DNA of 64,000 nucleotides from Lasiodiplodia sp. COLG20 (Eukaryota > Ascomycota > Dothideomycetes > Botryosphaeriales > Botryosphaeriaceae): NCBI GenBank assembly GCA_009801085.1, contig VNWV01000003.1, positions 434,001 through 498,000 on the forward strand, in the 5' to 3' direction. Under the pieces are notes generated by a model. The model searched no databases. It saw only the letters and a program-made list of their open reading frames with translations, and was not told the origin of the DNA. Made by a program: the position numbers and the translations under genes. Shown piece after piece: positions 59,502-64,000 of this stretch (the first letter of the stretch is position 1; each line of letters begins with the position of its first letter).

Positions 59502-60594
59502 CTAAGCCTTGCTCAACAGACCCTTCTCGGTAAGGTAGTCGACGATCTGCTGGACGGCAGCCTCGACGGGGGTCTCAGCCGACTTGATGAAGATCTCGGG
59601 GTTCTCGGGCTCCTCGTAGGGGGCCGAGATGCCGGTGAACTCGGGGATGATGCCGGCGCGGGCCTTTTTGTACAGGCCCTTGGGGTCGCGCTTCTCGGCG
59701 TCCTCGACGCTGATCTGCACGTAGACCTCGATAAAGGGGAGCGGCTCGTCGGCGCTGCCCTCGGGGACGGCGGCGTGCAGGGCGCGCGCCGAGGCGCGGT
59801 CGGCCTTGTAGGGCGAGATGAAGGAGGTGATGGCGATGCTGCTGCTGTCGGCGAAGAGCTTGGCGACCTGGTTGGAGGGGGGAAAGTGGGTTAGTTTTGG
59901 TTGATAGGCGTGGAGGAGGGAGGGGAGGGGTGTGAGAAAGGAAGAGAAGCGTGGTTGGGGTTGGCGCTTGCGTGATGCTGGGCGGGCGTGCTTGGCTGGG
60001 CTGGGCTGGGCTGGGCTGGGGGCGGTGTTGGTGTTGGTGGTGGTTGCACATGGCTGATGATGCCATTTGCACTAAAACCGCAGAAATCCGTGTCCTCTTG
60101 TGCTGACAGCGGTGCCGCAAGCCTGGTGTGTATGCGCTGGAAGAGAGCGGTGTTTCTTCATACCTCGCCTATCCTGCGGATGTTCTCGTTGCGGTCCTTC
60201 TCGGAGAAGCCGAGGTCCTTGTTCAGACCGAAGCGGACGTTGTCGCCGTCCAGGCGGTAGGCAGCGTAGCCGAGGTGGAGCAGGTGCTGCTCAAGAGCGG
60301 TGGCGATGGTCGACTTGCCCGAGGCCGACAGACCGGTGAACCAGAGAGTGAAGCCCTTCTGCTTGCGGTACTCGCTGCGCTCCTTGCGAGTGAGACCGGG
60401 GTGCCAGGTGATGTTGCTGTGAAGCAGACCGCAATGTTAGCTTGTTTGTGCTATTCTCGGCTGCGCGCTGTCGTCTGAGATCTGATGCGGTGATGTTGGG
60501 TGAAGTGTAAATACTGCGCGGCGAAGGTTCCGATAGCGGGGCAGACTGTGCAACGAAAATTCGTGGTGAAGCGGAGGAAAACTTACGTAGCCAT
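59502..60594 (-). CDS. MET14: Adenylylsulfate (APS) kinase
   Basis: APS kinase phosphorylates APS to PAPS in sulfate assimilation. Three exons (introns 60417-60586 and 59868-60163) give 208 aa, the usual length. The first exon is only 8 nt (ATG GCT AC), and splicing yields [16 protein letters not shown]. Visible motifs are the P-loop [40 protein letters not shown], then [19 protein letters not shown] and [16 protein letters not shown]. The C-terminus is [18 protein letters not shown]. The two introns (170 and 296 nt) are long for this genome; the larger one contains a CTGGG pentamer array. I looked for box C/D snoRNAs in both and saw none. Confidence 0.96.
59996..60020. repeat. (CTGGG)5 microsatellite in an APS kinase intron
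   Basis: Five perfect CTGGG copies on the plus strand, with degenerate GGTGTTGGT-type sequence to the right. Confidence 0.9.
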
Positions 60595-61778: not shown

Positions 61779-62537
61779 TCAACCAAAAGTAAACCCACTG
61801 ATCGACCCTGAGTTGTGCCCGAGTTGGAACCCCCTATTTCCAGCACCAGAGAAAATGACATTTGGCAACCGTTCTTCTCTCTCATCTAAGACCTTTTTCA
61901 CAGCCTCGCGCAAGCCCGGATCTTGGTCTGCAGCCACCCTTTCCAATAGCGGAAGATCAACGTTTACGCCCATTCTCGAGACCTCCTCGTTACAGAGGTT
62001 CTGCTGGGCATCACGCCTTACCGGCAATATCTTCTCGAGGTCATCAAGAAGTGCCCTGATACTTTCAAGTAGCGCCATAAAGTGTCCCCTCTCATAAAGC
62101 GCCCACTTTGTCTTCCTTGTCAAGCCAACTTTCTTCTGCCGCGCTTGCGCCAGGCTGCGCATATGCTCGTGGAGAACCAGCATCTGTCTCTCCATGTCGC
62201 TGTTTGGATCGCACGCTGCTAGTTCTGTCGCCGGGCCAGCCCTTTTCTTGAACTTTTCCGAGACTCCCTCTGCTTGAGCAAAGAGGACCAGAATTTGGCC
62301 GATCGTTTTCTTGGCTTGCTCGAGTTCACCTGGCGGGAGGCTATCCTCATTCTCCTTGATATGGACGGCTTCGCCCCACCGTGTAAGGCGGAGGCGAGCA
62401 TTATCCAGTTGCAGCTGGCTGGTACCAAATTCCGTGCCGAAATCGCGGCCGAGCTGGACGAATTCGAAGCAGTCGACGGCGTTGTTGAAGAGGCCGGCGA
62501 GGCCAAAGGCCCCGATGCCTAGGCTGACGGGCTCCAT
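61779..62537 (-). CDS. HeLo-domain protein with a C-terminal PP/RHIM-like amyloid motif (putative cell-death executor)
   Basis: A single exon encodes 252 aa. Residues 1-225 are a full HeLo (prion-inhibition-and-propagation) domain. It starts MEPVSLGIGAFGLAGLFN with the hydrophobic Gly-rich N-terminal helix, and continues with FEFVQLGRDFGTEFGTSQLQ, RLRLTRWGEAV and KTKWALYERGHFMALLESI. Known HeLo proteins (HET-S) insert the N-terminal helix into membranes when a C-terminal amyloid fold triggers them. Here the last 27 residues are short on charge and rich in Gly/Asn/Ser. They contain NRGFQLGHNSG (234-244), an exact fit to NxGxQxGxNxG, flanked by FSG before and SISGFTFG after. The divergent NLR carries the same type of motif. 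There is only one copy, unlike the doubled HET-s repeats. The domain call is firm; the amyloid function is inference from the motif and context. Confidence 0.9.
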   Translation of the reverse strand: MEPVSLGIGAFGLAGLFNNAVDCFEFVQLGRDFGTEFGTSQLQLDNARLRLTRWGEAVHIKENEDSLPPGELEQAKKTIGQILVLFAQAEGVSEKFKKRAGPATELAACDPNSDMERQMLVLHEHMRSLAQARQKKVGLTRKTKWALYERGHFMALLESIRALLDDLEKILPVRRDAQQNLCNEEVSRMGVNVDLPLLERVAADQDPGLREAVKKVLDEREERLPNVIFSGAGNRGFQLGHNSGSISGFTFG

Positions 62538-63187
62538 GTTTGAGTGAGCTGATTTCCGTGTGCTTCTATCGCACTTTCATCTCTTGAAGATGTGTGGCAG
62601 GTATATATGAGTTGAATGATCTCTTGAAGACGGGTTTACCGAGTAGTAGGTATATAAACAACGCCGGCGGCTGTCGTAACTGTCTACTCTATCAGAGCGG
62701 CAATGGCCAGACAGTCGATAGGCCCTACTCTCGCTTTACCTGCCATATGAGCCATTTCTATACGAGATGAAGGCTGAGTTTGCTGTTGTGTAACAGTAAT
62801 CATTTCTTGGCTCAAGGCTGTACTACCAATCACGCCTTAAATTTGAGCTCCTCCCCCACTTTCTGACATAAACATGTCTGCGCCGTAGGCAAGTCATCGC
62901 TCAAAAATGTAATTCTTGCAGGATTGCTGAAACGTGTGTGTGGATATTTCGTCAAGTAGCTGGCAAGGCTGGGTATGAAAGGGCCGTTTGTCCATTCCTA
63001 CTTTCCCTGACCTACGCCATCAAAGACTGCTCTTTCCGGGAGTCGCTGCAGGCATAAGGCTGTACAGTTTTCTGAGCTCCACCAGTGTCCATCAAGAGTT
63101 TGTGCTGAAATCCTTTTCCGTCGTTACTATTGGCGAGTCCACGGTCTCAGAGCTACCCAAAAGGCTGCTTGAGCCTGACGGCGAATC
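62538..63187. promoter_or_regulatory. Divergent promoter of the HeLo executor and the NLR
   Basis: The 650 bp between the two ATGs holds TATA-like sites at 62602-62609 and 62651-62658 on the HeLo side. A 12-bp direct repeat ATCTCTTGAAGA occurs at 62579-62590 and 62619-62630, each followed by a TATATA stretch. The apparent ORF from 62988 into the NLR frame begins on a non-ATG codon and is not used. Confidence 0.55.
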
Positions 63188-64000
63188 ATGTCTCACGCTG
63201 TTGGTTTCTCGGGGGAGCAAAACTGCGGAGTCCAGATTGCACATAACTCAGGGTTTGTCGGATTTGGTCGCACTTCCGGTAATGTCACAATCCAGTAGGA
63301 AAGGCGCAAGACTGATAATTCTTGCAGATGCACTCCGGCCTCCGTACCCAGAACCCTTTTCGAATGTACCGTTTCGCCGGAACCCTGACTTTGTTGACCA
63401 CGGAAACATATTACCGTCGATTGAAAATGCGCTGGCTCTGTCCGACGCCGCACGTTTTGCGCTTACAGGTCTCGGCGGCATCGGGTGAGATATGCTTCTT
63501 CCTGTGAATCAGAAAATTATGATTTACGGTGATTCAGGAAGTCTCAGTTGGCTATCGAATATGCATACCGGCGTCGCAAACGCCTTTCCGACATCGGATC
63601 ACCCGAATTTTGCTTTTGGGTGGATGCCGGTAGCCAGTCTCGATTCGAAAGTTCCTTCATGGACATTGCTGTCCGGCTTAAATTGGCGCAACGTGTAGAA
63701 GGTACTGGGAGACAACAAGATATTCTGCAGACTATGAAGGACTGGCTTGTTGATGAGAGAAACGGAGATTGGATATTGATTGTCGACAACGCGGATGACC
63801 TCTCCGTTCTGTTTGCGCCAGACACCGAAACTGATAGCACTGGACATACGAAGAGGAATCTCGCGGACTTTCTACCCCAGTCTCCGAACGGCAAAGTTCT
63901 GATTACTTCGAGGTCTAAGACTCTGGCACTCAGACTTGTCGGATACCGACCCGCAGATCTTCTGGAAGTACAACCGATGCCAGACGCACAAGCCCTTGAA
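63188..64000 (+). CDS. NB-ARC NLR receptor with an N-terminal PP/RHIM-like motif; cut by the window end
   Basis: Exon 1 (63188-63278) is a 91-nt exon that encodes 30 residues, starting MSHAVGFSGEQ and containing NCGVQIAHNSG (residues 12-22). Introns at 63279-63327 and 63485-63537 then join it in phase to NVPFRRNPDFVD, the usual lead-in of fungal NB-ARC receptors. The P-loop GLGGIGKSQLAIEYAYR spans the second splice. Later come the Walker B ILIVDNADD and KVLITSRSKTLALRL. The C-terminal repeats (TPR or other) lie beyond 64000. The N-terminal motif differs from the executor's by Ala for Gly at the seventh position but shares FSG, the Gln core and HNSG. This predicts a receptor that nucleates amyloid folding of the neighbouring HeLo protein on ligand-driven oligomerisation. 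Exon 1 lies in a frame different from the main ORF. Confidence 0.88.

What the first reader, a model, noticed from the sequence alone, without database searches (positions are those of the whole stretch)
61779..64000. Two-gene amyloid signalosome: HeLo executor and NLR receptor with matching motifs
A HeLo protein and an NB-ARC NLR are divergent neighbours. The C-terminus of the first (FSG..NRGFQLGHNSG) and the N-terminus of the second (FSG..NCGVQIAHNSG) carry the same short motif. In known fungal systems (HET-S/NWD2, HELLP/PNT1) exactly this arrangement transmits a death signal through an amyloid fold from receptor to pore-former. To me this pair looks like a new instance and possibly a new motif subfamily.
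Basis: partly seen in the sequence, partly recalled or inferred. Interest (0 to 1): 0.92.

Follow-up and report, generated by a model that had tools for sequence, protein, structure and literature searches.

The report
Fungal PP-motif amyloid death-signal gene pair
Two neighbouring fungal genes, a membrane-punching killer protein and an immune-type receptor, carry the same short amyloid motif; this is a further example of an arrangement described in 2012, and here the receptor gene looks broken.

Summary
A 252-aa HeLo protein (minus, 61779-62537) ends in FSGAGNRGFQLGHNSGSI plus a short tail. A divergent NLR gene starts 650 bp away, and its first exon (63188-63278) carries FSGEQNCGVQIAHNSGFV. 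The likeness is not chance: 0 of 20,000 shuffles reach it, and the only two matches found for the PP profile PF17046 in the 43.5-Mb genome are these neighbours (the NLR one alone is weak, E 0.25). "New instance" holds; "new motif subfamily" does not. This is the PP motif (PF17046 is "PP (misnamed SesB)" in PMC12261475). HeLo-PP beside PP-NB-ARC-TPR was reported in Arthroderma in 2012 (PMC3321046). Beyond the window the NLR continues through NB-ARC and TPR, but its frame ends at a TAA late in the NB-ARC region and homology resumes in another frame, where three relatives read through. So the receptor is a young pseudogene or carries an assembly error; the executor ORF is intact. Pair-specific covariation was not seen. 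In passing: the same genome holds a second HeLo/NLR pair sharing a different motif that no Pfam model recognises.

The parts
61779..62537 (-). HeLo-domain executor gene, 252 aa, single exon
   Evidence: PF14479 E 2e-45; matches the solved HeLo chains 2wvo, 2wvn and 2wvq at E 1.8e-36, 1.5e-35 and 3.6e-32; intact ORF
61800..61853 (-). C-terminal PP amyloid-signalling motif FSGAGNRGFQLGHNSGSI
   Evidence: PF17046 29 bits, cut-off 23.2; coordinates; PF17046 and a PP-type tail in 48 of 120 listed HeLo homologues
62538..63187 (.). 650-bp divergent intergenic region between the two start codons
63188..63278 (+). NLR exon 1, 30 codons + 1 nt, carrying the PP motif
   Evidence: open frame, GT donor at 63279
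63206..63259 (+). N-terminal PP motif FSGEQNCGVQIAHNSGFV
   Evidence: PF17046 19.1 bits, below cut-off; 0 of 20,000 shuffles reach its score with the HeLo motif
63279..63327 (+). intron 1, 49 bp, GTAATG..TTGCAG
   Evidence: Podospora PNT1 has a 54-bp intron at ORF nt 95-148 (PMC7885112)
63328..63484 (+). NLR exon 2: linker and start of the NB-ARC domain
   Evidence: frame open after joining; P0242 and P0165 align here
63485..63537 (+). intron 2, 53 bp, GTGAGA..ATTCAG, inside the P-loop coding region
63538..64000 (+). NLR exon 3, NB-ARC, cut by the window end; continues on contig C23 to a frame break (TAA at L001:3283-3285), then TPR to L001:4705

Best explanation
A two-gene PP-motif amyloid signalosome of a fungus that is probably one of the Botryosphaeriaceae (nearest named HeLo relative Lasiodiplodia hormozganensis). 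The NLR would sense a cue through its TPR repeats and oligomerise through NB-ARC. Its 30-residue first-exon peptide would then take a RHIM/PP-type amyloid fold and template the same fold on the C-terminal PP motif of the HeLo protein, freeing the HeLo domain to insert in the cell's own membrane and kill the cell. Shown here: domains, motifs, gene order, splice frame, conservation of the HeLo-PP executor. Inferred from studied relatives: sensing, amyloid templating, killing. In this assembly the NLR reading frame is interrupted late in the NB-ARC region, so the receptor may no longer work as a full-length protein.
For: HeLo and PP profile hits. PF17046 is the PP motif (PMC12261475, one passage read). 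With the core spacing NxGxQxGxN given in PMC9815663 (passage), both motifs fit the PP pattern, the HeLo copy at 11 of 11 fixed or hydrophobic positions and the NLR copy at 10 of 11, with A for one G (my count). The only two PF17046 matches found in the genome are 1.35 kb apart; two random sites would lie that close with probability about 7e-5. PP exon followed by a short intron, as in Podospora PNT1. TPR region; NB-ARC by homology. PP at the N-terminus of NLR proteins: 14 of 205 fetched NLR homologues by a strict pattern (11 of 120; 3 of 85), 4 of them with PF17046 annotated (P0126, P0145; P0245, P0247). HeLo and NLR have consecutive locus tags in Neofusicoccum ribis (SLS56_002133/002134) and lie on contigs of the same length, 12101, in an unnamed source (P0003/P0243). 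The known systems work this way (PMC7885112, PMC5485727, passages read).
Against: The NLR motif is below the Pfam cut-off and has A in place of a core G. The 2012 consensus as printed, FxGx(x)NxGLQLxGxNxGxL, has one more position between Q and N than either motif here; its stated length of 17/18 and the later core suggest a slip in print, but that is my reading. No pair-specific similarity. The NLR frame is broken. NB-ARC and NACHT profiles hit the NLR only below their curated cut-offs. No expression or amyloid data could be obtained.
Confidence: 0.85

Rival explanations
1. The receptor is a pseudogene and the locus no longer signals through it; the HeLo executor persists, switched on by another NLR, by spontaneous prion formation, or doing something else. 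(An add-on to the best explanation rather than its opposite.)
For: The frame ends at TAA (L001:3283-3285) and NB-ARC homology resumes in another frame. P0122, P0243 and P0165 read on across the site, and no intron that would bridge it was found by eye. In N. ribis the adjacent NLR model is only 273 aa, and P0243 ends at 261 aa before the TPR part. L. hormozganensis, L. theobromae, Diplodia seriata and N. parvum give HeLo-PP hits of 229-252 aa, but none is named among the NLR hits listed (120 of 208; 93 of 93).
Against: A single lesion, with 474 codons of open, conserved frame after it, fits a very young lesion or an assembly error equally well. One executor relative is itself altered: P0003 has W in place of a core G. 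No second PP-bearing NLR was found that could take over: and a PP pattern scan of loci L001-L029, which include the 10 other places matching the NB-ARC part, hit only this locus.
Confidence: 0.5
2. A new motif subfamily distinct from PP.
For: The HeLo-linked motifs share extra features (FSG start, often HNSG and an ISGFTFG tail). The NLR exon scores 44-77 with 49 HeLo motifs but 25-50 with 14 other NLR N-termini.
Against: The Pfam PP profile already covers it, and the Arthroderma HeLo/NLR pairs were among the sequences that defined PP. An alignment of the two motifs with 26 others keeps the core N.G.Q.....G, but those 26 were picked from 69 sequences that had already matched a PP pattern, so this is weak.
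Confidence: 0.05
3. Chance similarity of two glycine- and asparagine-rich stretches; exon 1 is not part of the NLR.
For: The motif is short; exon 1 alone is below the Pfam cut-off and only E 0.254 in the genome search; neither motif finds the other as a single genome-wide query.
Against: 0 of 20,000 shuffles; the two sole genome matches are neighbours; splice sites and frame fit; single-protein homologues carry PP directly before NB-ARC.
Confidence: 0.02

Closest known systems
HeLo-PP / PP-NB-ARC-TPR gene pairs of Arthroderma otae and A. gypseum (Daskalov et al. 2012, PMC3321046, section read)
   Same: HeLo domain with a C-terminal PP motif, next to an NB-ARC-TPR STAND gene with an N-terminal PP motif
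   Different: A different, probably Botryosphaeriaceae, fungus; here the NLR frame is broken in the assembly. Gene orientation there was in a figure I could not see.
HELLP/PNT1 of Podospora anserina and HELLP/SBP/PNT1 of Chaetomium globosum (PMC7885112, passages read)
   Same: PP motif on both partners, NB-ARC-TPR receptor in Podospora, active PP peptide PNT1(1-31), short intron soon after it
   Different: The executor there has a HeLo-like (HELL) domain, here HeLo proper; no SBP-type third PP partner was found, since PF17046 matched only twice in this genome
HET-S/NWD2 of Podospora anserina (passages; abstract)
   Same: HeLo executor next to an NLR, shared motif
   Different: HET-s beta-solenoid repeats, NACHT-WD receptor; the HET-s motif profile is not hit here
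sigma system (sesA/sesB/het-eN) of Nectria haematococca (section read)
   Same: Motif shared by effector and NLR
   Different: Different motif and effectors; NACHT_sigma is not hit

Membership tests
PP-motif NLR signalosome | Effector with HeLo or HeLo-like domain and a C-terminal PP motif | tested here: met
   PF14479 E 2e-45; PF17046 29 bits over cut-off 23.2
PP-motif NLR signalosome | Adjacent NLR with an N-terminal PP motif | tested here: met
   Motif in exon 1 and open spliced frame; profile score below cut-off, 19.1 of 23.2 bits, but pairwise test 0 of 20,000
PP-motif NLR signalosome | NB-ARC plus TPR receptor architecture | tested here: met
   TPR_12 E 1.1e-28; NB-ARC by homology to P0165 and P0242, both annotated PF00931; Pfam NB-ARC itself only E 0.023
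PP-motif NLR signalosome | Receptor frame intact | tested here: not met
   TAA at L001:3283-3285 with homology resuming in another frame; assembly error not excluded. This bears on whether the receptor works, not on the class of the locus.
PP-motif NLR signalosome | Motifs co-evolve within the locus | tested here: inconclusive
   31 of 48 other HeLo motifs score higher than the own partner, 4 equal, 13 lower; no relative with both motifs visible in one locus
PP-motif NLR signalosome | Motifs form amyloid/prion and cross-seed; executor kills | not testable with these tools
   Needs bench work
HET-S/NWD2 (HRAM) | Two HET-s-type repeats in the effector, one in the NLR | tested here: not met
   No PF11558 in the Pfam scan of the proteins nor in the genome (that search rang in none of 14 controls, so it does not show absence)
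sigma system | sigma motif in both partners | tested here: not met
   No PF17106 in the Pfam scan nor in the genome (that search rang in none of 14 controls, so it does not show absence)

The most novel reading that the evidence does not exclude
This genome runs several parallel HeLo death pathways, each with its own motif code: PP in the window, and at least one more (C34:1577252-1579363, HeLo next to a STAND NTPase-ankyrin NLR) whose shared motif G.NYG.Q.TIHNG...IN matches no Pfam model and may be an undescribed or strongly diverged amyloid-signalling class. At the PP locus the executor has outlived its receptor.
Probability: 0.25. Interest if true: 0.5.

Novelty: new member of a known kind. 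Interest (0 to 1): 0.27.

Why it matters
PP motifs are thought to be related to the RHIM of animal necroptosis (PMC7885112, passages), so each PP locus with a true HeLo executor shows how widely this death wiring is used. The motif placement, the intron after the PP exon and the executor/receptor pairing repeat what is known. The points worth following are receptor decay beside a conserved executor, and the second, unannotated motif pair elsewhere in the genome.

Tried and rejected
A sigma or HET-s assignment was rejected (genome searches were empty, but rang in no control). A new PP subfamily was rejected. An intron bridging the NLR frame break was looked for by eye: candidate splice sites would remove conserved NB-ARC sequence, and three relatives read through. 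Pair-specific covariation was not found. Rfam gave no match at gathering thresholds in the window. Paper searches for Botryosphaeriaceae or Lasiodiplodia amyloid NLR loci showed no dedicated paper in the listings seen (15 of 214, none of which uses the name Lasiodiplodia; 12 of 24, none of which uses the name Botryosphaeriaceae; the search found 0 papers); the library lacks most subscription journals. No structure prediction was run: the HeLo match to solved chains by sequence was decisive, and an amyloid cannot be judged from a single-chain model. The first HELLP paper (2016, recalled) was not seen.

Full report
WHAT IS THERE. On the minus strand, 61779-62537, lies a single-exon ORF of 252 aa. 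It is a HeLo protein: PF14479 E 2e-45, and phmmer against solved structures returns three chains named small s protein (2wvo, 2wvn, 2wvq) at E 1.8e-36 to 3.6e-32, covering residues 2-218 in the best case; the other 5 of 8 hits at E up to 1 are FKBP51 chains at E 0.29-0.37. Its tail carries FSGAGNRGFQLGHNSGSI. On the plus strand, 650 bp from the HeLo start codon, exon 1 of an NLR gene (63188-63278) encodes MSHAVGFSGEQNCGVQIAHNSGFVGFGRTS. Two introns of 49 and 53 bp with GT..AG ends join it in frame to an NB-ARC coding region.

BEYOND CHANCE. The local alignment score of the two motifs, 54, is reached by 0 of 20,000 shuffles of exon 1; in 8526 thirty-residue six-frame pieces of the window, 3 reach it, two being overlapping pieces of the HeLo tail itself and the third exon 1. 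The Pfam PP profile PF17046 matches the genome (43.5 Mb) twice, both times here, out of 3 candidates scored: E 8.2e-6 and E 0.254. The same search rings, below cut-off, in 1 of 14 control genomes. BLASTP of the two peptides gives 10 of 16 identities. Against: single-sequence genome searches with either motif return only the query itself, and the NLR copy is below the Pfam cut-off.

WHICH MOTIF. Daskalov et al. 2012 (PMC3321046; abstract and sections 8, 9, 11 and 16 read) define the PP motif from HeLo, Goodbye-HeLo, sesB and STAND proteins, and describe in Arthroderma otae and A. gypseum HeLo proteins with a C-terminal extension next to STAND genes of NB-ARC-TPR type with a homologous N-terminal extension. 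That is the domain layout of this locus. Their consensus as printed has one position more between Q and N than the motifs here; the core given later, NxGxQxGxN (PMC9815663, passage), fits the HeLo copy fully and the NLR copy except for A in place of the second G. PMC12261475 calls PF17046 "PP (misnamed SesB)" (passage). In Podospora PNT1 a 54-bp intron lies at ORF nt 95-148, and prions formed by PNT1(1-31) activate HELLP (PMC7885112, passages); here the intron follows nt 91.

RELATIVES. The HeLo search gives 187 hits, 120 listed; 48 of the 120 carry PF17046, and the same 48 match a PP pattern. The nearest named one is from Lasiodiplodia hormozganensis (84% identity), so the genome is probably one of the Botryosphaeriaceae (inference). 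NLR searches: 208 hits, 120 listed (only the 7995 candidates sharing most words were scored), and 93 hits, listed in full. By a strict pattern, 11 of 120 and 3 of 85 newly fetched proteins have an N-terminal PP motif; a looser pattern finds 21 of the 205. The rest are fragments, have other N-termini, or do not match.

RECEPTOR STATE. Outside the window the NLR frame ends at TAA (L001:3283-3285), and homology (RNTAVRLLSLMAFF and on to TPR) resumes in another frame. P0122, P0243 and P0165 read across the site. The part after the break is open for 474 codons and is 56% identical to P0122. So either a recent frameshift or an assembly error. Intact relatives exist. In N. ribis the neighbour model is 273 aa and lacks the motif exon; P0243 is 261 aa and also lacks it. 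Together this hints at receptor decay beside a conserved executor, but annotation gaps could give the same picture; and in P0003 the executor motif itself has lost a core G.

COVARIATION. Of 48 other HeLo motifs, 31 score higher with exon 1 than its own partner (54), 4 the same and 13 lower; the range over all 49 is 44-77. With 14 other NLR N-termini exon 1 scores 25-50. So the motif leans to the HeLo-linked PP type, with overlap; pair-specific coevolution is not seen.

MECHANISM. By analogy with HET-S/NWD2 and HELLP/PNT1 (passages of PMC5485727 and PMC7885112): NLR oligomerisation, amyloid folding of exon 1, templating of the HeLo tail, membrane insertion, cell death. None of these steps is shown here.

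OTHER PAIRS IN THE GENOME. Twelve HeLo matches were found, 11 over the cut-off; the search also rings, below cut-off, in 1 of 14 controls. Besides the window locus I fetched the surroundings of four (C21, two on C34, C32) and scanned three of these (C21 and the two on C34) for a partner motif. At C34:1577252 the HeLo tail (GVKFVNKGTNYGQQSTIHNGSVEIN) has as its only other genome match the first exon of the next gene (C34:1579277-1579363, E 0.013, 2 candidates scored). That gene has a STAND-type NTPase (NPHP3_N PF24883, E 2.5e-9, over cut-off) and ankyrin repeats. 0 of 20,000 shuffles reach the motif score, and no Pfam model matches either stretch. At C34:619516-619677 a HeLo tail (NTGTINGQQIGQVN) resembles the start of a convergent ankyrin gene (NAGIIIGQQIGSIN; 22 of 20,000 shuffles), but the genome search with that tail finds only itself and no NTPase domain was recognised in the ORF tested. 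At C21 a HeLo gene has an in-frame TAG and a tail that I recall as HET-s-like, though Pfam gives no hit. At C32 no motif was recognised by eye in the tail; its neighbourhood was not searched for one.

Noticed in passing
Own genome C34:1577252-1578088 (HeLo) and C34:1579241 onward (NLR: NPHP3_N NTPase and ankyrin); loci L032, L033: A second HeLo/NLR pair, in tandem, sharing a 25-residue motif (G.NYG.Q.TIHNG...IN) that no Pfam model recognises. The NLR exon is the tail's only other match in the genome (E 0.013); 0 of 20,000 shuffles reach the score. Possibly a diverged PP relative or an undescribed amyloid-signalling motif.
   Followed up: partly
Own genome C34:614740-620379; loci L034, L008: A weaker candidate pair, convergent: HeLo tail NTGTINGQQIGQVN and first exon of an ankyrin gene NAGIIIGQQIGSIN. 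22 of 20,000 shuffles reach the score, the genome search with the tail finds only itself, and no NTPase domain was recognised.
   Followed up: partly
Own genome C21:149596-150174; loci L006, L030: A HeLo gene with a tail that looks HET-s-like to me (from memory; no Pfam hit), an in-frame TAG early in the six-frame reading, and no convincing partner motif within the flanks scanned, 7.6 kb and 9.8 kb.
   Followed up: partly
L001:3283-3285 (contig C23, just outside the window): Frame break in the NLR partner gene; three relatives read through.
   Followed up: yes
window 60161-60436, minus: Adenylylsulfate (APS) kinase gene fragment (PF01583 E 4.3e-28), downstream of the HeLo gene; not part of the signalosome.
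   Followed up: partly
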